Shown: positions 1 through 6,783 of the stretch, in pieces
How the letters are laid out: each line of letters begins with the position of its first letter
How positions within the stretch are numbered: the stretch's first letter is position 1
DNA from: a virus
Strand: one strand, 5' to 3'
DNA: 22,308 nt
IMG/VR virus record: IMGVR_UViG_3300028558_000274
Coordinates: 1-22,308 of that record
Translations under genes and position numbers: made by a program
The notes under the pieces: model-generated
What the model saw: the letters and a program-made list of their open reading frames with translations, nothing else
What the model was told of the DNA's origin: nothing
The model's database searches: none

Positions 1-2
1 TT

Positions 3-1745
3 TACCAGAACCCGTATGTGAGCGTTGAGGACATCTATGCTTACGCGATGGACATCATTCGCTCGAACAACCGATTCGGCGGCGTCTATCCGTCCGACCG
101 GTTCTTGCCGATTATCGACCTATACAAACTCTGGCATATGGATAACCGCGCCAAGAGCACCAGTCTCAAGGCGCTGCAGGTCAGCATGCGTTCCGAGTCG
201 GTGATGGAAATGCCGCTGCCGTTCGACCAGCCTTTGACCAGGGCGCAGATCGACCAGTACCTCATTCCGTATAATCGCCACGACGTCGCGGAGACCAAAA
301 AGTTCGCGCACATTTCAATGGACGCGATCAAGTTCCGTATCGGGCTTATGGATACGCTGAAAGGCGACGTGCCGAACTGGAACGACACTAAGATCGGCTC
401 CAAGATTCTCGAACAGCGGCTCGGTATTGATAAATACGCCGGCACGACACGCCGCGACACCATTCCGCTCAACGACATTATTTTCCCATACATCCGGTTC
501 GACCACCCCGAGTTCAACCGCATTCTGAACTGGATGCGCGGACAGACGCTCGCCGCGGACGAACTGACCGAGTCAATCCAGACCAAGGGAGTGTTTACGG
601 GAGTCAAGGCGACGGTCGGCGGTCTCGATTTCCACTTCGGCACGGGTGGAATTCACGGATCCGTCAGCGCGCAGCGGTTCGTCGAGGACGACCGCATTAT
701 CTGCGACATTGACGTCGCGGCGCTGTACCCGTCGATCGCCATCGTGAACGGGCTTTATCCCGAGCACCTGGGAACGCGGTTCGTCGAGGAATATGCGAAG
801 TTGCCAGTGGAGCGCGGCAAGTACGCCAAGGGCACCGTGCAAAACGCCGCGTTCAAGCTCGCCGCGAACGGCACATACGGCAATAGCAACAACGCATATT
901 CGGTGTTCTACGACCCGCGTTTCACCATGCAAATTACCATCAACGGGCAACTTATGCTCTGCATGTTGGCGGAGCGGCTGTTGATGGTGCCGAGCCTGGA
1001 GATAATCCAGATCAACACGGACGGCATCACGTATCGCATTCATCGCGTGATGGCACCGATTGCCGAGCGCGTCCGGTCGGAATGGGAAACCCTCACCAAG
1101 TTGAAGTTGGAGGAGGCGCGCTATCGGCGCATGTGGATCCGCGACGTCAACAACTACATCGCCGAAACGACCGACGGCAAGTTGAAGCTAAAAGGGGCGT
1201 ATTGGTATCCCAAGAACTTCCCCGACGACATCACGAACGCCAGCCCGCCGGCATGGCATAAGGACTTTTCCAACGTCGTCGCCACCAAGGCGGCGGTCGA
1301 CCACATGGTCAACGGGACCGACATCGAGCGGTTCATCTACAGCCACCGCGACCCGTTCGATTTCATGCTGCGCGCCAAGGTGGACCGCTCGTCGCGGCTG
1401 AAGTTGGGCGGGCGCGAAATGCAAAGGATCATGCGCTATTACGTGGCGGTGAACGGCGCCGAACTGAAAAAAATCAGCCCGCCAGTCAAGGGCGCGCGGG
1501 TGGGGGACTGGAAGCGCCGCAACGGGATTAGTGACCAATTGTGGCATGACGTGACACAGGAGGTGGGACCGGGCGTATGGGACGCAAGGATTCACACGGC
1601 GAACAAAAGCAAATACGTCATTCGCGAAATGGCCATCGAGTCCGGGTTCAAGGTGGCGGACTGTTCGGTGGCGGCCGATTTCGATTTTAGCAACGTCGAT
1701 TATGCTTGGTACGTTGACCAGGCGCGGCGGCTGGTGATTCCGTAA
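3..1745 (+). CDS. Family B DNA polymerase (5' partial)
   Basis: Replicative DNA polymerase of the phage. The frame is open to the left edge, so the start and the first exonuclease motif lie outside; the GTG at 18 is probably internal. Counting from that GTG, an exonuclease region is visible: IDLYKLW near 33-39 and an Exo III-like YNRHDVAET at 85-93. Polymerase motif A is DVAALYPS at 232-239, motif B is KLAANGTYGN at 280-289 and motif C is NTDG at 333-336. In families with DTD at motif C the second Asp is the essential metal ligand, and it is kept here while the first is Asn, so activity is plausible. The stop TAA shares its last A with the ATG of the next gene (VRR-NUC), suggesting a replication operon. 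Family assignment is firm; subfamily is not determined. Confidence 0.93.
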   Translation, partial: YQNPYVSVEDIYAYAMDIIRSNNRFGGVYPSDRFLPIIDLYKLWHMDNRAKSTSLKALQVSMRSESVMEMPLPFDQPLTRAQIDQYLIPYNRHDVAETKKFAHISMDAIKFRIGLMDTLKGDVPNWNDTKIGSKILEQRLGIDKYAGTTRRDTIPLNDIIFPYIRFDHPEFNRILNWMRGQTLAADELTESIQTKGVFTGVKATVGGLDFHFGTGGIHGSVSAQRFVEDDRIICDIDVAALYPSIAIVNGLYPEHLGTRFVEEYAKLPVERGKYAKGTVQNAAFKLAANGTYGNSNNAYSVFYDPRFTMQITINGQLMLCMLAERLLMVPSLEIIQINTDGITYRIHRVMAPIAERVRSEWETLTKLKLEEARYRRMWIRDVNNYIAETTDGKLKLKGAYWYPKNFPDDITNASPPAWHKDFSNVVATKAAVDHMVNGTDIERFIYSHRDPFDFMLRAKVDRSSRLKLGGREMQRIMRYYVAVNGAELKKISPPVKGARVGDWKRRNGISDQLWHDVTQEVGPGVWDARIHTANKSKYVIREMAIESGFKVADCSVAADFDFSNVDYAWYVDQARRLVIP

Positions 1746-2116
1746 TGGCCCGCGCGCCCCTAGAGCACGATCTACAGCGCGCATTTATTATATGGGCGCG
1801 CGGCCACAAGAACCTGTCGCCGGCGCTCCTGCCCGGCGTCGTGTGCTGGTCGGTGCCCAACGGCGGCACCCGCGACGGGTTCGAGGCCAAGCGGCTCAAA
1901 GAGGAGGGGATACTGGCGGGCATCCCCGACGTGCATTTGCTTTGGGGCGCCCTCCACTGCCTCGAATTCAAGACCGCCACGGGCCGGCTATCCCCCGCCC
2001 AAGTGGACCTGCACCCCCGCCTAGTCGCCGCCGGGGCGCGTGTGGCCACGGCCTATTCGCTGGACGAGGCGAAGCAAATTGTCCGCGCTTGGGGGTTGAC
2101 AATACACGGTCGGTGA
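1745..2116 (+). CDS. VRR-NUC domain nuclease
   Basis: A 123-aa single-domain nuclease of the PD-(D/E)xK superfamily, VRR-NUC type, a group that in phages is linked to DNA replication, recombination or branched-DNA processing. Visible motifs in order are PNGG at 38-41, GIPD at 59-62 (metal-binding Asp), the catalytic pair ExK at 74-76 in LEFKT, and the GRLSPAQ segment at 80-86 that ends the core. The length fits stand-alone phage VRR-NUC proteins. The ATG overlaps the polymerase stop by 1 nt (TAATG), so translation is probably coupled and the protein likely works with the polymerase. The exact DNA substrate cannot be read from sequence. Confidence 0.9.
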   Translation: MARAPLEHDLQRAFIIWARGHKNLSPALLPGVVCWSVPNGGTRDGFEAKRLKEEGILAGIPDVHLLWGALHCLEFKTATGRLSPAQVDLHPRLVAAGARVATAYSLDEAKQIVRAWGLTIHGR

Positions 2117-2123
2117 GTAGGAT
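2096..2123 (+). promoter_or_regulatory. Sigma-70-like promoter, + strand
   Basis: TTGACA at 2096-2101, a 16-nt spacer and TAGGAT at 2118-2123. It overlaps the end of the VRR-NUC gene and faces the small HTH gene and the peptidase/methyltransferase/integrase genes. The -35 box is inside a copy of the recurring 12-mer TTGAYAATACWC. Inferred from box match and spacing only. Confidence 0.5.
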
Positions 2124-2158
2124 GCGTCCAGTAGCAATGCCCAAGCAGTGAGTTCGCT

Positions 2159-2392
2159 TTGTACGACCGTTCCGACACGACATGGCTGTTCCGTTTCTAT
2201 TCTGGCGACGCACTTAGCGACATCGGCGCGTCGTTGTTTCGAAGCGGGATGGCGATTTCCACCCGCATCCGAGACGCCGGTCTGCCTCGCCGTCCGCGCG
2301 GAAACTTCAACGCCCCCGTTCGGGAACAGTGGCTCCAACGTCCCGACATCGTCGCACTGCGCAACAAGTACCGACCTAGAGAGGCAGCATGA
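2159..2392 (+). CDS. Small helix-turn-helix protein
   Basis: A 77-aa protein whose residues about 13-45 (YSGDALSDIGASLFRSGMAI, then RIRDAGLPRR) resemble a homeodomain-like helix-turn-helix with the usual pattern of G-x-S/A-hydrophobic-D-I-G, followed by a recognition helix and a terminal R-x-AGLP. A DNA-binding role, perhaps in control of the downstream operon, is inferred. The only usable start in this frame after the TAG at 2132 is TTG 2159; no clear ribosome binding site precedes it. A promoter lies directly upstream. The stop overlaps the next ATG as ATGA, which supports it being a real coupled gene. Confidence 0.6.
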   Translation: MYDRSDTTWLFRFYSGDALSDIGASLFRSGMAISTRIRDAGLPRRPRGNFNAPVREQWLQRPDIVALRNKYRPREAA

Positions 2393-2958
2393 TCTTCCCG
2401 TATCGCATTCGCCACGATGTTGTCTTGCGCGCCTTGGTCGTCGTTGGCGTGATCTTGGCGACTGTAATCGCCCTGTCCATGAGCGCGGCGCATGCAAGCC
2501 CAATCGAGTGCGGGCGGTTCGGCTGTTCAGACTGGTCGCGCCACGCCGCACCCGTCGTCAGCAAGCGGCACCACGCCCGCCACCATGCCGCTCACGACGC
2601 CAACGGCAACATTGCGGACAGCCGCTACTGCCACCCTGAGACTGCCGCCGGTCGCATCACGATCGCCTGTGACCTAGCGCCGAAGATGGTCGGCTTCATC
2701 AATGACGTCGTGGCGCGCGGCTTCAGGGGGCCGGTGCATTGCCTTTCCTATTCCAAGAGCCACGTTGCGCACAGCCTGCACTTCCGCGGCGAGGCGTGCG
2801 ACTTCGCGCAACGCGGATGGGGGCGGACGGTTCCGGTGATGCGGCGGGTGGCCGATCTGGCGGCGAAATGGGGTCTGCGCGACGGCTGCACATTTCGGGA
2901 CTGCGGGCATGTTGATTCGGGTAGGTCGATCGGTCGGGTTCGGATGGTGCGGCGGTGA
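2389..2958 (+). CDS. Secreted M15-like zinc peptidase
   Basis: A 189-aa exported protein. Residues about 11-36 form a signal peptide ending near AHA-S. After a His-rich stretch (HHARHHAAHD, 61-70) comes a compact domain with the D-Ala-D-Ala carboxypeptidase/M15 signature: SLHFRGEACD at 129-138 fits SxHxxGxAxD, and GHVD at 173-176 supplies a further zinc ligand. Six or more Cys residues suggest periplasmic disulfides. Members of this fold cut or bind peptidoglycan peptides. The ATG has AGAGAGG upstream and overlaps the preceding stop (ATGA). Its place in the early/integration operon instead of the lysis cassette is unusual and suggests lysogenic conversion or a wall-modifying role. Alternative: a catalytically inactive wall-binding protein. 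Confidence 0.7.
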   Translation: MIFPYRIRHDVVLRALVVVGVILATVIALSMSAAHASPIECGRFGCSDWSRHAAPVVSKRHHARHHAAHDANGNIADSRYCHPETAAGRITIACDLAPKMVGFINDVVARGFRGPVHCLSYSKSHVAHSLHFRGEACDFAQRGWGRTVPVMRRVADLAAKWGLRDGCTFRDCGHVDSGRSIGRVRMVRR

Positions 2959-3149
2959 CCATGAAGCGCGACAAAATCAAGATCGCCGTATCGCTCTGCG
3001 TTCTCGCTGTGGTTTTGACTTGGGCCTATCTCTATCCATCGCCGGAGGGGCGATGCGTGTCGGAGGAGATATGGGAGGACGGAGGATTCGCGCTCTTTGC
3101 TGTTCCGCCCACCAAACACCTCTATTGCACGCATTGGGTCTATCGTTGA
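2955..3149 (+). CDS. Small membrane protein, unknown function
   Basis: A protein of 62 to 64 aa. The GTG at 2955 overlaps the preceding TGA as GTGA, matching the style of the operon; ATG 2961 is the alternative start. Residues about 9-26 (IAVSLCVLAVVLTWAYLY) form one hydrophobic segment, preceded by Lys/Arg residues, which predicts an anchored protein with a short, two-cysteine outer domain ending in HWVYR. I do not recognise a family. Its position between a secreted peptidase and a methyltransferase, with overlaps on both sides (GTGA in, TTGA out), supports it being real. Confidence 0.5.
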   Translation: MTMKRDKIKIAVSLCVLAVVLTWAYLYPSPEGRCVSEEIWEDGGFALFAVPPTKHLYCTHWVYR

Positions 3150-4105
3150 CCGTCCGCCTCTACATCGGCGACGTACGGTCGGAGCTGCGGCGCATCGCGT
3201 CGAACAGCGTTCATTGCGCCGTGACGTCGCCGCCATATTTCGGACTGCGCGACTACGGATGCGCTGGCCAGATCGGCTTAGAGCCGACACCCGACGACTA
3301 CGTTGCGGAAATGGTCGCGGTGTTTCGCGAGGTGCAGCGAGTGCTGCGTCCAGACGGAACGCTGTGGCTGAACTTGGGGGATAGTTACGCCGGCGGAGGG
3401 TGTGGCGCTCGTGACCCGGAACGCTGGCCTAAACAATCGCGATCGGCTGGTACGACGATGCCGATTCACTCCAAAAAACAGACGGGTCTTAAAAACAAAG
3501 ACCGCCTGATGATCCCCGCCCGCGTCGCGCTGGCACTGCAAGCCGATGGCTGGTATTTGCGCGACGAAATCATTTGGCACAAGCCGAACCCGATGCCCGT
3601 GAGTGTGACCGATCGCACCACGCCAGCGCATGAAATGCTCTACATGCTGTCGAAATCGGCGCGGTACTATTACGACATGGAGCAAATTCGCGAACCGTTG
3701 AGCGAAAGTACGCTTAAACGGTGGAAAGGTGTTCCAACTCGTACTGGCCCGAACGGCACAGATACCGTGGCGCGATCAACGCCGACCGGTAAAGAAACGA
3801 CTTGCGGTGCCAATCCCGCCGGACGCCAGCCTCGCTCCGTGTGGTCGATACCCACTCGCCCGTTCAAAGGCGCGCATTTCGCCACGTTCCCGCCCGACCT
3901 GATTCGACCGTGCATTCTCGCCGGCTGCCCCAAGGGCGGCACAGTCCTTGACCCCTTTTTCGGAGCGGGCACCACTGGCGTTGTGGCGAACGAACTTGGT
4001 CGCAACGCAGTCGGCGTCGAGTTGAACCAGGAATATGCCGCCATCGCACTTGAACGCATCTTGGCGGCGCAGGGCGCGAACCGGCGGTTACAGGTGGCGG
4101 CGTGA
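3146..4105 (+). CDS. DNA methyltransferase, beta group (N4-cytosine or N6-adenine)
   Basis: A 319-aa site-specific DNA methyltransferase of the N4/N6 family (N6_N4_Mtase). Catalytic motif IV, TSPPY, is at 27-31, before the SAM-binding motif I, DPFFGAGTT at 269-277: the beta-group order. The SPPY form favours N4-cytosine, whereas DPPY is usual for N6-adenine, but specificity cannot be settled by eye. The middle (about 85-235) holds the variable target-recognition part. Start is TTG 3146, overlapping the preceding stop as TTGA; longer in-frame starts would run far into the upstream gene and precede the conserved RLYIGDV start of the fold. No restriction enzyme is nearby, so it is an orphan methylase, probably for protection from host restriction or for regulation. 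Confidence 0.9.
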   Translation: MTVRLYIGDVRSELRRIASNSVHCAVTSPPYFGLRDYGCAGQIGLEPTPDDYVAEMVAVFREVQRVLRPDGTLWLNLGDSYAGGGCGARDPERWPKQSRSAGTTMPIHSKKQTGLKNKDRLMIPARVALALQADGWYLRDEIIWHKPNPMPVSVTDRTTPAHEMLYMLSKSARYYYDMEQIREPLSESTLKRWKGVPTRTGPNGTDTVARSTPTGKETTCGANPAGRQPRSVWSIPTRPFKGAHFATFPPDLIRPCILAGCPKGGTVLDPFFGAGTTGVVANELGRNAVGVELNQEYAAIALERILAAQGANRRLQVAA

Positions 4106-4419
4106 CCCTCATCCCCCTGTCCGAAGCCGCCGCCCAAATCCCCGGCGCCACCTCTCAGACCTTGCTCCGCCGGGCGCGGCAGGGTAGGTTGACAGTGTAC
4201 CGGGTGGGTCGATCATACGCGACAACGCCCGAGGCTGTTGCGGAGATGGTGGAATCTTGTCGCGTCGCGCCAAAGGGCCTCGACTCTGGCTTAGACCAGC
4301 CCGTCACGATGCGGCCGGCACCGTCACACATCTCGCGACCTGGATCATCCGAGACGGACAGCGCGCAAAGGGAACTGGATGCGGCGCTGGCGAAACTAAA
4401 GAAGCCGAAAGGGCGCTAG
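4102..4419 (+). CDS. Excisionase-like HTH DNA-binding protein
   Basis: A 105-aa protein whose first 53 residues resemble MerR/AlpA-type excisionases: LSEAAAQIP, then SQTLLRRARQGRLTVYRVGR and a PEAVAEMV tail, that is, a recognition helix followed by a wing ending in VGRSY. These proteins bind near attachment sites and turn integrase toward excision. The rest is low-complexity and ends in KKPKGR. The start is GTG 4102 overlapping the methyltransferase stop (GTGA). The last 163 nt also encode, in another frame, the N-terminus of the integrase. Position just before int supports a recombination directionality role. Confidence 0.7.
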   Translation: MTLIPLSEAAAQIPGATSQTLLRRARQGRLTVYRVGRSYATTPEAVAEMVESCRVAPKGLDSGLDQPVTMRPAPSHISRPGSSETDSAQRELDAALAKLKKPKGR

Positions 4420-5420
4420 CCGCCTACATCGATTCCAAGCACACATCGCACGTTATTTCGACCAAGCGCGACCCCGCCTTTATCCTGGTCGACGACGTGC
4501 TCGCGATATACGCCCGCGACATCGCGCCCAAGCACGCACGCCCCGACGAAACCGCAGCCCGCATAAAGCGGTTGGCGGCGTTCTGGCACGCCCGCAGGCT
4601 ATCTGAGGTAACCGGGCAGACGTGCCGCGAATACGCACGAAAGCGTGGTGGCGGTGCGCGGCGAGAACTGGAGGAGTTGCGCGCGGCGATCAACTATCAC
4701 CGCCGAGAGGGGCTGCACGACAAGATCGTCTCGGTGGTGCTTCCGGCGAAACCGCCATCCCGCGAACGCTGGCTATCGCGCGAGGAAGCCGCGCGCTTGA
4801 TCCTGACCGCGTGGCGGCACAAGGACGACAACCCGTTTCAGCGGCGCACCTGGCGCCATGTGGCCAAGTTCATGCTAGTCGCCCGGTACATGGGGTCGCG
4901 AGCCGCGGTCATCTGCGGCGCGTCGATCGAACCCAAGCGTCCGGCCGGCAAGCCGTGGATTGATTTGACCACGGGCGTTTTCCACGGGCGCCCGCAGGGG
5001 CACCGGGACACCAAAAAGCGGCGGCAGACAGTTCGGGTGCCTGACCCGCTTTTGGCGCACCTACGGCGATGGCAGCGGCTCGGGCAACGCTACGCTGTGG
5101 AGTGGCGCGGCAAGCCCGTCACGCGCGTTTCCAAGGGTCACGCGGCGGCGGTCGCCGCGGCGGAGTTGGAGCCGGACGTCACGCCGCACACATGGCGGCA
5201 CACGGTCGCCTCTTGGGCAATGCAGCGCGGCGCGGATCCCGGTGAGACTGCCGAATTCCTAGCCATGTCCTACGAGACGCTAATCCGGGTCTATGGTCAT
5301 TTCCGGCCGAACCAATTTGCGAGCGTTCACGCGGCGCTGGCGAGCGACGGCAAGCGCCACAGGACCGCCACAGATAACCGTGAACGCGAAGGCAACTCAC
5401 GCGACCGCAGTACACGCTAA
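4257..5420 (+). CDS. int: Tyrosine recombinase, phage integrase
   Basis: A 387-aa site-specific integrase. The N-terminal 60 residues form an arm-binding-like module (MSRRAKGPRLW, then RGTGC-type GTGCGAGE and an AEx2L helix). A SAM-like core-binding domain spans about 73-160 and the catalytic domain about 170-360. Catalytic residues visible are Arg in GSRAAVI (about 215), a Lys in TKKRRQ (about 253-254), HTWRH (His311, Arg314) and the nucleophile Tyr346 in RVYGHF. The start TTG 4257 with GGTGGA upstream is supported by homology of its first 50 residues with the protein starting at 5663. It lies 163 nt inside the xis-like gene. The attP core begins 35 nt after its stop, and an arm-type repeat pair lies in its 3' end. 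Confidence 0.93.
   Translation: MSRRAKGPRLWLRPARHDAAGTVTHLATWIIRDGQRAKGTGCGAGETKEAERALAAYIDSKHTSHVISTKRDPAFILVDDVLAIYARDIAPKHARPDETAARIKRLAAFWHARRLSEVTGQTCREYARKRGGGARRELEELRAAINYHRREGLHDKIVSVVLPAKPPSRERWLSREEAARLILTAWRHKDDNPFQRRTWRHVAKFMLVARYMGSRAAVICGASIEPKRPAGKPWIDLTTGVFHGRPQGHRDTKKRRQTVRVPDPLLAHLRRWQRLGQRYAVEWRGKPVTRVSKGHAAAVAAAELEPDVTPHTWRHTVASWAMQRGADPGETAEFLAMSYETLIRVYGHFRPNQFASVHAALASDGKRHRTATDNREREGNSRDRSTR
5355..5374 (+). repeat. Left arm-type direct repeats of attP
   Basis: Two direct copies of CGCCACAG at 5355-5362 and 5366-5373, 11 bp apart (one helical turn), inside the integrase 3' end. The second is part of the 11-mer ACCGCCACAGA (5364-5374), which recurs exactly at 5552-5562 beyond the core. 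Interpreted as integrase arm sites from placement and repetition. Confidence 0.55.
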
Positions 5421-5455
5421 GGCACTGTAATCGCTATGTCTGCTCGCTGGGGTAA

Positions 5456-5504
5456 CACGTTCGGGACGTGGGGGTCGCAGGTTCAAATCCTGCCACTCCG
5501 ACCA
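5456..5504 (+). other. attP core: 3' half of tRNA-Pro(CGG)
   Basis: The segment folds as the 3' part of a tRNA. Anticodon stem CACG/CGTG encloses the 7-nt loop TTCGGGA (5460-5466) with anticodon CGG at 5462-5464. The T-arm is GCAGG-TTCAAAT-CCTGC (5477-5493), and the acceptor 3' strand CACTCCG, discriminator A and CCA end at 5504. Upstream sequence does not form a D-arm or the matching CGGAGTG acceptor strand, so this is not a complete tRNA gene. Phages that integrate in tRNA genes carry exactly such a 3' segment so that the host tRNA is rebuilt. It lies between the integrase gene and further phage genes, with paired repeats on each side, so it is best read as attP. Confidence 0.85.
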
Positions 5505-5541
5505 ATCAAATCAAGGGCTTAGGTTTTCCCGACCGACCTAC

Positions 5542-5562
5542 CGCCACCAGAACCGCCACAGA
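5542..5562 (+). repeat. Right arm-type direct repeats of attP
   Basis: CGCCACCAG at 5542-5550 and CGCCACAG at 5554-5561, 12 bp apart and in the same orientation as the left pair. The 11-mer ACCGCCACAGA at 5552-5562 is identical to that at 5364-5374. The pair begins 37 nt after the tRNA CCA. Interpreted as arm-type integrase sites. Confidence 0.55.
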
Positions 5563-5596
5563 ATGCCATCAATCTTTGACGCTTATTGCTACCCCG

Positions 5597-5638
5597 TTGA
5601 CTTTTCGCGCACAATCGAGTAAATTGTCAACTATTGAC
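5597..5638 (+). promoter_or_regulatory. Promoter plus dyad operator before the GIY-YIG gene
   Basis: TTGACT (5597-5602), a 17-nt spacer and TAAATT (5620-5625) form a sigma-70-like promoter. Immediately after the -10 lies the perfect dyad GTCAA-CTA-TTGAC (5626-5638), whose arms extend imperfectly outward. The dyad matches GTTAA-CAC-TTAAC at 6426-6438 as GTYAAnnnTTRAC, so the same repressor may bind both. Functional role is inferred. Confidence 0.45.
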
Positions 5639-5662
5639 GATTATAATGTGCGGAGCGACGAA

Positions 5663-6097
5663 ATGTCCCGAAGATCGAAAGGCCCCCGCCTGTGGTTTAA
5701 TCGCAAGCGAAATCTTTGGTTTATCCTCGATACGCCGAACATTCAGCGCGGGACGGGATGCAAGATCGGCGAGCGCGAGGAGGCCGAAAACCTCCTGTTC
5801 AAATACATCGAGGAAAACGGCCGAAATCACTACGTCTATTTCGTGACTGCCGATGCCCCAGATTTCCCGGTCAAGATCGGAATTTCGCTTAAGTTCAGGC
5901 AGCGCATAAACGACTTGCAGACCGCCTTACCTTACGAGATTCAGACGCTCGCCATTCACCCGACAAAGGACGCGATTTTTGAGCGCCGGCTGCACCGGAA
6001 GTTCGACCATCTCCACATCCGCGGAGAGTGGTTCCGCCGCACGCCCGAACTATTGGCGTATATCGAATCACTGGTCACGACCGACCAGGCGGCGTAG
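5663..6097 (+). CDS. Integrase-arm-domain / T5orf172 (GIY-YIG-like) fusion
   Basis: A 144-aa two-part protein. Residues 1-50 (MSRRSKGPRLW, then RGTGC at 29-33, GEREEAE, and a KYIE helix) are clearly homologous to the first 60 residues of the integrase of this phage. Residues 57-137 are a T5orf172/MUG113 domain of the GIY-YIG superfamily: YVYFV (57-61), VKIGIS (70-75), R near 79-81 (FRQRINDLQ), ERRLHRKF (107-114) and GEWF (121-124), which line up with the GIY, YIG, Arg and Glu positions of the nuclease core. ATG 5663 has GGAG upstream at good spacing; longer starts would run into the att core. A role in recombination, att-site control or DNA cleavage is inferred; the catalytic state is unknown. 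Confidence 0.75.
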   Translation: MSRRSKGPRLWFNRKRNLWFILDTPNIQRGTGCKIGEREEAENLLFKYIEENGRNHYVYFVTADAPDFPVKIGISLKFRQRINDLQTALPYEIQTLAIHPTKDAIFERRLHRKFDHLHIRGEWFRRTPELLAYIESLVTTDQAA

Positions 6098-6115
6098 CCG
6101 CCGCCGCCGCCGCCC

Positions 6116-6352
6116 CTAAGTCTCATCCCAAATAATTCCACGGCTATTTCCCGAAAATGTGAAGCGCACGCCCTCGCGTTCGTAGTATCCTTGCAAGCGT
6201 GCGCGCAAATCGAGACTCGCCTGTCCTTCCTCGACGCGCCGGATAGAACTGTCTGAAACGCCCGATCGGTCGGCGAGCCGCCGCACCGAGAGCGACAGTA
6301 CCGCACGCGCCGCACGCGCCTGGCGCGGCGACATCGCCCTAATCGTCTGCAT
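6116..6352 (-). CDS. Small XRE-family HTH regulator (repressor candidate)
   Basis: A 78-aa DNA-binding protein. Residues 8-43 form a helix-turn-helix of the Cro/CI (XRE) type: SPRQARAARAVLSLSVRRLA, then a turn with GVSDSSIRRVEEGQ. The tail is short (YYEREGVRFTFSG) without a peptidase or dimerisation domain, as in many small alphaproteobacterial regulators. ATG 6352 is chosen because GGGGGT precedes it; an in-frame ATG at 6391 would add 13 residues but has no ribosome binding site. It faces away from the + gene at 6552 across a region with several dyads, the usual layout of a lysogeny switch. It converges with the GIY-YIG gene, 18 nt away across a (CCG)5 run. Confidence 0.75.
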   Translation of the reverse strand: MQTIRAMSPRQARAARAVLSLSVRRLADRSGVSDSSIRRVEEGQASLDLRARLQGYYEREGVRFTFSGNSRGIIWDET

Positions 6353-6425
6353 TTGCACCGACCCCCAAGAGTCACTCTCGGCGCGCAACATGGCGAAAAT
6401 TCACGGTTTTTCAATGCTTGTCGCT

Positions 6426-6485
6426 GTTAACACTTAACCGGGAACCTGTGAACTATAATTCAACCGACCGTGAGCAAATTTTGCT
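6426..6485. promoter_or_regulatory. Operator-like dyad array in the divergent intergenic region
   Basis: Three dyads lie in an AT-rich gap: GTTAA-CAC-TTAAC (6426-6438), TGAA-CTATAA-TTCA (6449-6462) and AGCAAA-T-TTTGCT (6473-6485). Their centres are about 23-24 bp apart. A TATAAT (6454-6459) lies in the middle one. The sequences differ from each other, so one binding protein for all three is not shown. The gap 6392-6551 holds no other gene that I can support except a possible 7-codon ORF (6532-6555) whose stop overlaps the next GTG. Confidence 0.4.
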
Positions 6486-6551
6486 TGCGGGTGAATAAAT
6501 TTTGACTAAGGTTGTGGTCGTTAGTGCACACATGCAACGAACGGGTGGAGC

Positions 6552-6734
6552 GTGAAACAAATAACGGGGGCAGAGCGGGCGGCCTTGGTAGGCCCGAAAT
6601 CGGGGGATGAAATCGACGACGGAATCGCGATGGCGCTACTCGATGCGGCTCGCGAGCTGGCCGAGGTCAAAGAGCGGATTGAGACGCTGGTGAACACGCA
6701 CGCGATGCGTCGCGGTGTGAAGGTGGCGGCATAA
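6552..6734 (+). CDS. Small hypothetical protein in the control region
   Basis: A 60-aa protein, acidic and helical in the middle (MALLDAARELAEVKERIETL, about 27-46), which suggests a coiled-coil. No family recognised. GTG 6552 has GGAG only 1 nt upstream, which is poor spacing, but a 7-codon ORF (ATG 6532, stop TGA 6553-6555) ends on this GTG and could couple translation. It is the only + gene between the operator-like region and a strong terminator, so it is the sole product of that transcript. That position is the one usually held by a Cro-like or anti-repressor gene, but no HTH is visible. Confidence 0.5.
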   Translation: MKQITGAERAALVGPKSGDEIDDGIAMALLDAARELAEVKERIETLVNTHAMRRGVKVAA

Positions 6735-6756
6735 CCGAGATGCGAGTGGGCGACTC

Positions 6757-6783
6757 GGCCGCGCAAATGCGGCCTTTTTCTTT
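6757..6783 (+). terminator. Rho-independent terminator
   Basis: Perfect 6-bp GC stem GGCCGC (6757-6762) / GCGGCC (6769-6774) with loop GCAAAT, followed by TTTTTCTTT. It sits just after the 60-aa gene and stops + transcription before it enters the convergent DUF7338 gene. No U-tract exists on the other strand, so it is one-directional. Confidence 0.85.

What the first reader, a model, noticed from the sequence alone, without database searches (positions are those of the whole stretch)
5663..6097. Integrase arm-binding-like domain fused to a GIY-YIG-superfamily domain, next to attP
The first 50 residues of this 144-aa protein match the first 60 of the integrase 1.4 kb upstream (MSRRxKGPRLW, RGTGC/KGTGC, AExxL...YI), but the catalytic part is replaced by a T5orf172/MUG113 domain with YVYFV, KIGIS, Arg and GEWF. 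The two genes lie on either side of attP. An orphan copy of the domain that places integrase on DNA, fused to a nuclease-type domain, could compete for arm sites, set integration/excision direction, or cut att DNA, including att sites of competing elements. I know of no described function for this arrangement.
Basis: partly seen in the sequence, partly recalled or inferred. Interest (0 to 1): 0.78.

Follow-up and report, generated by a model that had tools for sequence, protein, structure and literature searches.

The report
Integrase-guided nuclease beside phage attachment site
A small temperate-phage protein joins a copy of the DNA-gripping domain of the neighbouring integrase to a DNA-cutting-type domain, and similar fusions turn up next to unrelated integrases in other elements, which suggests a recurring kind of nuclease aimed at phage attachment sites.

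Summary
Window 5663-6097 encodes 144 aa. Residues 1-51 belong to the N-terminal (arm-binding-type) domain family of phage 16-3-like integrases: profile E 2.5e-22, 64.9 bits, against 11.5 bits for the best of 5000 shuffles. Residues 57-134 are a T5orf172/MUG113 GIY-YIG domain with the catalytic-type Tyr, Arg and Glu intact. The gene lies beside attP, a tRNA-Pro(CGG) 3' half shared with phage 16-3 and flanked by CCGCCACAGA repeats. Two relatives lack the gene there. The survey shows more. I found seven fusions of this plan, using three unrelated integrase N-domain types. Each lies by an integrase, and own-pair similarity beats every other pairing (1 of 5040 permutations). One further fusion carries its neighbour's Xis-type helix-turn-helix, and one a whole integrase. 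Related GIY genes in viral contigs lie next to, or fused with, an integrase in 18 of 22 integrase-bearing records; MUG113 genes in chromosomes mostly do not (7 of 57). Best reading: a chimeric, attachment-site-directed nuclease, homing-endonuclease-like and parallel to ICP1 Odn (T5orf172 plus a replication-initiator domain). Cutting and target are inferred, not shown. New variant of a known kind.

The parts
5663..6097 (+). chimeric gene: integrase-type arm-binding N-domain + T5orf172/MUG113 GIY-YIG domain, 144 aa
5663..5815 (+). N-domain (residues 1-51), beta-beta-beta-alpha, 16-3-type integrase N-terminal family
   Evidence: HMM E 2.5e-22; AF2 and VIA-align: AP2 domain 6sy0 Z 5.4, lambda Int arm domain 1z1b Z 4.9
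5831..6064 (+). GIY-YIG (T5orf172/MUG113) domain, residues 57-134; Y59, K71-I72-G73, R81, E107, GEWF
   Evidence: Slx1 6sei Z 5.4, At-HIGLE 7wme Z 5.2
4257..5420 (+). tyrosine integrase, TTG start, 37% identical to phage 16-3 Int
   Evidence: phrog_1 integrase 1.4e-22
4102..4419 (+). excisionase-like HTH gene overlapping int, as xis overlaps int in phage 16-3
   Evidence: phrog_1840 excisionase 2.7e-5; 16-3 annotation
5456..5504 (+). attP core: tRNA-Pro(CGG) 3' half; 5456-5477 identical to 16-3 attP
5352..5374 (+). candidate left arm sites (AAGCGCCACAG, GACCGCCACAGA), inside the int 3' end
   Evidence: inferred as arm sites from position and repetition
5540..5562 (+). candidate right arm sites (ACCGCCACCAGA, ACCGCCACAGA)
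   Evidence: inferred
5597..5625 (+). promoter-like TTGACT-17-TAAATT upstream of the GIY gene
   Evidence: consensus match only, 2 found against 0.7 expected
6116..6391 (-). HTH regulator; its relative follows attP in the GIY-less relative L169
   Evidence: HTH_3 1.3e-4, below cut-off; local alignment score 162 to the L169 ORF

Best explanation
The gene encodes an attachment-site-directed endonuclease: a T5orf172/MUG113 GIY-YIG domain steered by a copy of the arm-binding domain of the neighbouring integrase. SHOWN: the two-domain make-up; the homology of the N-domain to the integrase family; the position beside a genuine attP; the intact catalytic-type residues; and recurrence of the same plan in at least seven loci with three unrelated integrase N-domain types, each lying by an integrase whose N-domain is of the same type. 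INFERRED: the protein binds arm-type sites of its own and related elements and the GIY domain cuts DNA near them. The likeliest use is homing-like. It breaks the integration module of a co-infecting or resident rival that has the same arm sites but lacks the gene. Repair from the gene-bearing phage then spreads the gene with its int-attP neighbourhood, or the rival is simply destroyed. The carrier would be spared if the cut site were split or missing, as in I-TevI-type enzymes, which bind without cutting when no cut site is at the right distance (described for I-TevI; PMC10448857). Binding the arm sites just upstream of its own promoter-like sequence could also autoregulate the gene.
For: N-domain profile test. 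N-domain fold: AP2 domain Z 5.4, lambda Int arm domain Z 4.9, rmsd 2.3 A over 42 residues. GIY fold: Slx1 and At-HIGLE, Z 5.4 and 5.2. Y59, KIG, R81 and E107 invariant in 40 of 40 domains. Second full-length homologue in a Rhizobiales genome, directly between int and a tRNA-Pro(CGG) att half. Independent fusions: L163 (int-GIY-tRNA-Asn), L166, L255 (GIY next to tRNA-Glu), L257 (GIY next to tRNA-Gly), L285. Own integrase is the best match of the seven for six of seven N-domains, and only 1 of 5040 permutations, the observed one, reaches the observed sum. GIY N-terminus resembling the Xis-type HTH upstream of int: L164, score 82, shuffles at most 52. Whole integrase plus GIY in one protein: L167. 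P0001-like GIY genes adjacent to or fused with int in 18 of 22 integrase-bearing viral records. No GIY gene at this place in the relatives L169 and L171, so the gene is an add-on. Precedent: Odn, T5orf172 + RepA_N, cuts the PLE origin, and E180A inactivates it (PMC8263062). T5orf172 genes treated as homing endonucleases at exchange boundaries (PMC10448857). Window 1-6757, including int, attP and GIY, is 100% identical to contig L038; beyond it identity falls abruptly to about 80-97% in the aligned parts.
Against: No binding or cleavage was tested. An arm-directed nuclease faces its own arm sites, and how self-cutting is avoided is not shown. The gene lies right of attP in the window but between int and att in L160, L163, L255 and L257, so one fixed insertion site is not seen. 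Most int-adjacent GIY genes do not carry a recognisable int domain. The identical 6.76 kb tract is much larger than the gene, and its left end lies outside the contig, so it is not specific evidence for homing. Fold-match Z scores are modest (4.9-5.4).
Confidence: 0.5

Rival explanations
1. Regulator: the protein is a non-cutting or rarely cutting competitor that occupies arm sites and sets integration/excision direction or lowers Int activity, like an excisionase or an orphan arm-binding domain.
For: The N-domain keeps the conserved basic MSRRxKGPRLW tail and the TGC motif of integrases; the gene is within 160 bp of attP; another int-adjacent GIY protein carries an Xis-type HTH instead; L165 has the GIY-HTH gene just upstream of int, where xis usually lies.
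Against: Catalytic-type Tyr, Arg and Glu are invariant in 40 of 40 domains, not expected of a pure binder. The phage already has its own xis-like gene. Close relatives do without the GIY gene.
Confidence: 0.2
2. Superinfection-exclusion (moron) nuclease: expressed from the prophage edge, it cuts incoming DNA carrying the same class of attP, protecting the lysogen's attachment locus, without homing.
For: Position at the prophage end beside the tRNA in L160, L163, L255 and L257; Odn shows that a T5orf172 chimera can serve pure interference (PMC8263062).
Against: The prophage's own excised attP would share the sites; no expression data; nothing in the sequence separates this from homing.
Confidence: 0.2
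3. Remnant: the N-domain is a leftover of a duplicated integrase and the fusion has no att-related function.
For: Tandem integrations at one att site can leave truncated int copies (general knowledge).
Against: N-domains are only 33-54% identical to the neighbouring integrase, yet frames are open and catalytic-type positions are unchanged across independent loci with three domain types.
Confidence: 0.05
4. Integration helper: the GIY domain nicks or trims att DNA as part of the normal recombination of these phages.
For: Tight linkage with int in many elements, and one protein with int and GIY in one chain.
Against: Phage 16-3 integrates, and the window's closest integrase relatives appear to integrate, without it; tyrosine recombinases need no extra nuclease (general knowledge).
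Confidence: 0.05

Closest known systems
Odn (Gp88), origin-directed nuclease of vibriophage ICP1, and its coliphage homologues (PMC8263062, PMC10448857)
   Same: T5orf172 GIY-YIG domain that keeps the catalytic Arg and Glu, fused to an N-terminal DNA-binding domain about 42% identical to that of a mobile-element protein.
   Different: Odn uses a RepA_N replication-initiator domain from a rival satellite and cuts its origin. Here the domain is an integrase arm-binding type, it matches the element's own neighbouring integrase, and the gene sits beside its own attP.
T5orf172 homing endonuclease genes of ICP1-like and T5-like phages (PMC10448857)
   Same: Same nuclease family, modular DNA-binding N-terminus, presence/absence between relatives, neighbours of key modules.
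   Different: Those carry mostly zinc-finger domains (CapR, DUF723, DUF4397; 200 of 229) and cluster near terminase, ribonucleotide reductase and capsid genes; integrase N-domains are not among the domains reported in the sections I read.
Integration module of Rhizobium phage 16-3 (int, xis, attP)
   Same: int 37% identical over 94% of its length, xis overlapping int, attP core with 22 identical bp in tRNA-Pro(CGG).
   Different: 16-3 has no GIY gene annotated beside attP.
I-TevI and other GIY-YIG homing endonucleases
   Same: GIY-YIG nuclease joined to a separate DNA-binding part.
   Different: I-TevI is intron-borne with C-terminal DNA binding; here binding is N-terminal, from an integrase, and the domain has KIG instead of YIG.

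Membership tests
T5orf172/MUG113 (GIY-YIG superfamily) | profile match over the curated cut-off | tested here: met
   PF13455 41.6 bits (cut-off 22.3), PF10544 28.2 bits (cut-off 20)
T5orf172/MUG113 (GIY-YIG superfamily) | catalytic-type Tyr, Arg and Glu | tested here: met
   Y59, R81, E107 invariant in 40 domains; YIG Tyr replaced by Lys in all 40
T5orf172/MUG113 (GIY-YIG superfamily) | endonuclease activity | not testable with these tools
   needs protein
16-3-type integrase arm-binding domain | sequence profile | tested here: met
   E 2.5e-22; best of 5000 shuffles 11.5 bits
16-3-type integrase arm-binding domain | three-stranded sheet plus helix like lambda Int N-domain | tested here: met
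   AF2 topology; 1z1b Z 4.9, rmsd 2.3, 42 residues; Z modest
16-3-type integrase arm-binding domain | binds arm-type sites | not testable with these tools
   candidate sites named
Tyrosine recombinase | catalytic domain with RHRH/Y residues | tested here: not met
   no integrase match beyond the N-domain in 144 aa
Odn-class chimeric nuclease | T5orf172 fused to a domain shared with a mobile-element protein | tested here: met
Odn-class chimeric nuclease | RepA_N domain aimed at a replication origin | tested here: not met
   N-domain is integrase-type; no RepA_N match
Homing endonuclease gene | absent from related alleles of the same locus | tested here: met
   L169: int, attP, then the HTH regulator without GIY; L171: attP then a small ORF
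Homing endonuclease gene | gene conversion tract around the gene | tested here: inconclusive
   6757 bp identical to L038 then abrupt divergence; larger than the gene, one end unseen
Homing endonuclease gene | cuts the gene-less allele and spares its own | not testable with these tools
   needs assay
Excisionase | promotes excision; HTH or winged-helix fold | tested here: inconclusive
   no HTH in this protein, function untested; the xis-like gene is at 4102-4419

The most novel reading that the evidence does not exclude
A previously unrecognised class of integration-module nucleases: temperate phages and integrative elements repeatedly fuse a T5orf172 nuclease to the arm-binding domain (three unrelated types) or Xis-type domain of their own recombination system, making attachment-site-directed nucleases that drive homing of whole int-attP modules and police which element may occupy a given tRNA site.
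Probability: 0.4. Interest if true: 0.88.

Novelty: new variant of a known kind. Interest (0 to 1): 0.72.

Why it matters
If right, competition between prophages for tRNA attachment sites has a dedicated weapon that borrows the integrase's own address system, and the frequent swapping of integration modules between temperate phages gains a candidate driver. It would also show that making directed nucleases by joining T5orf172 to a mobile-element DNA-binding domain, known from ICP1 Odn, has happened many times around integrases. The pairs of integrase and fusion give ready-made natural variants for testing arm-site specificity.

Tried and rejected
Phage and plasmid collections searched with the whole protein: hits are to the GIY part, at most reaching into the linker or helix before it. 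N-domain: no Pfam or NCBIfam hit and only a sub-significant PHROG hit (phrog_26775, E 0.25), so custom profiles were used. Single-protein scan of viral contigs: only identical copies and one GIY-only hit. The genome-contig scan used only the GEWF pattern. Tree of 40 GIY domains: star-like, int-linked genes not one clade, so origin counts cannot be read from it. 'N-domain is closest to its own integrase' within the 16-3 type: only second of 41 for the window and for L160, so co-evolution within that type is weak; the strong signal is across types. L255's own integrase is not its best match (59.5 against 75 for L257 and 101 for L041), and its reading frame is interrupted. Foldseek alone gave nothing at E under 0.001. 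Mixed alignment of N-domain and GIY rows misaligned, so the two parts were aligned apart. L165 GIY N-terminus against the L164 Xis: no similarity. Literature searches found no paper on an integrase N-domain fused to T5orf172; only open-licence PMC papers were searched.

Full report
OBSERVATION. The window is a whole 22308-base IMG/VR viral record. ORF 5663-6097 encodes a 144-aa protein (P0001). Residues 1-50 align to residues 1-59 of the integrase at 4257-5420 (38% identity, pairwise E 1e-11). Residues 57-131 match MUG113 and T5orf172 over the Pfam cut-offs. I built a profile from 21 integrase N-termini that excludes P0001; it scores P0001 at 64.9 bits. Leaving out the window's own integrase as well gives 64.7 bits, and 5000 shuffles reach at most 11.5 bits. 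AlphaFold2 predicts strands 9-13, 18-24 and 27-30, helix 38-52, then a separate GIY-type domain. VIA-align places the N-domain with an AP2 DNA-binding domain (Z 5.4) and the lambda integrase arm domain (1z1b, Z 4.9, rmsd 2.3 over 42 residues). It places the C-domain with Slx1 and At-HIGLE (Z 5.4 and 5.2). These Z values are modest and are used only beside the sequence evidence.

ATTACHMENT SITE. The integrase is 37% identical to that of Rhizobium phage 16-3 over 94% of its length. An excisionase-like gene (phrog_1840) overlaps its 5' end, as xis overlaps int in 16-3. The window and the annotated 16-3 attP share 22 identical bases, and 5461-5504 matches a tRNA-Pro(CGG) 3' half. CCGCCACAGA occurs exactly at 5365 and 5553 and nowhere else without a mismatch. 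Each has a degenerate partner next to it (AAGCGCCACAG at 5352, ACCGCCACCAGA at 5540). I infer these to be the arm sites. So int and the GIY gene lie on either side of a genuine attP.

HOMOLOGUES. Searches of phage and plasmid records with P0001 find the GIY half only. In 397 Rhizobiales genomes there is one further full-length homologue (L140/L160, 42% identity over 3-141). It lies in the order xis-like, int, GIY fusion, tRNA-Pro(CGG) att half, then chromosomal transport genes. A pattern scan of viral contigs based mainly on the GIY motif gave 36 records that I then searched for integrases. Of the 22 with one, 16 have the GIY gene directly downstream of int on the same strand. One (L165/L044) has it directly upstream, and one (L167/L097) has integrase and GIY in one protein; 4 are not adjacent. 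Two of the 18 are near-duplicates. With gaps under 500 bp on contigs of about 50 kb, chance would give roughly 3% per record (my estimate).

UNRELATED DOMAINS, SAME PLAN. In L163 (Novosphingobium) the GIY N-terminus LPKYVTRFVSQHGSVRYRFRRKG matches the adjacent integrase LPKHVSKFESQHGTVRYRFRKAG, and tRNA-Asn follows. In L166 the GIY N-terminus RAGRPRFNPSSRERALGF matches its integrase RDGRPRFIPSARERKLGF. As a background test I took MUG113 hits in 347 Rhizobiales and 348 Sphingomonadales genomes and fetched 60 loci with small open frames. Only 7 of 57 have an integrase within 1 kb, so the family in general is not integrase-linked. Yet those 7 include three more fusions with an integrase-type N-domain: L255 beside tRNA-Glu, L257 beside tRNA-Gly, and L285, whose integrase is beside tRNA-Leu. 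Over the seven fusions (window, L160; L163, L255, L257; L166, L285) the own-pair similarity sum is reached by 1 of 5040 permutations, the observed one, and by 1 of 24 permutations within domain types. Own-pair identity is 33-54%. A GIY protein in L164 carries an HTH similar to the Xis-type HTH upstream of its integrase (score 82, shuffles at most 52).

LIMITS OF THE PAIRING. Among 41 integrases of the 16-3 type the window's own integrase is the second-best match to P0001, almost tied with the first, and the same rank holds for L160. The strong signal is that domain types match, not that each pair co-evolved in fine detail. L255's N-domain is closer to other integrases than to its own. Most int-adjacent GIY genes do not carry a recognisable integrase domain. 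The viral sample was chosen with a motif derived from P0001 and so describes that subfamily.

ACTIVITY AND MOBILITY SIGNS. Tyr59, KIG 71-73, Arg81 and Glu107 are invariant in all 40 GIY domains. GEWF is also nearly invariant, but that motif was part of the selection. The relative L169 (integrase 59% identical) has int, attP and then the HTH regulator without a GIY gene, and L171 likewise has none after attP. The gene is therefore best read as an addition. Contig L038 is identical to window 1-6757, across int, attP and GIY, and then diverges abruptly. This points to recent exchange of the module, but the tract is far larger than the gene and one end is unseen.

MECHANISM. The best-supported reading is a chimeric endonuclease directed to attachment-type DNA by an integrase arm-binding domain, probably spreading or defending int-attP modules in a homing-like way. 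The precedent is Odn of phage ICP1: its N-domain is 42% identical to the RepA_N domain of a satellite, its T5orf172 domain cuts the satellite origin, and the E180A change abolishes cutting (PMC8263062). T5orf172 genes are interpreted as homing endonucleases with swappable DNA-binding domains (PMC10448857), and the sections read name zinc-finger and RepA_N domains but no integrase domain. Binding, cutting and self-protection are inferred. A regulator or an exclusion nuclease remain live rivals.

NOVELTY. The kind (T5orf172 chimeric or homing nuclease) is known. The variant (integrase arm-binding, Xis-type or whole-integrase partner, beside its own attP, arisen with several domain types) was not found in the literature available here.

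Noticed in passing
L167:14740-16245 (G008, viral contig): One protein of 501 aa holds a complete tyrosine integrase (PF00589 6.6e-17) and a C-terminal MUG113/T5orf172 domain.
   Followed up: partly
L164:8891-9319: GIY gene overlapping the 3' end of int by about 14 bp; its N-terminal HTH resembles the Xis-type protein encoded just upstream of int.
   Followed up: partly
L165:11671-12156: GIY gene with an HTH-like N-terminus directly upstream of int, in the place usual for xis; possibly an Xis-GIY fusion.
   Followed up: no
window 6757: Sharp mosaic boundary: 1-6757 identical to contig L038, then about 80-97% identity in the aligned parts.
   Followed up: partly
L255 (int upstream of 2926-3486): The integrase reading frame next to this fusion is interrupted, from a real decay or a sequence error.
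   Followed up: no
Rhizobiales and Sphingomonadales genomes: A frequent class of roughly 400-aa MUG113 proteins, not examined here, likely another functional family.
   Followed up: no
window 5352-5562: Two pairs of direct repeats (CCGCCACAGA type) flank the attP core; the right pair lies just upstream of a promoter-like site for the GIY gene, which would allow autoregulation.
   Followed up: partly
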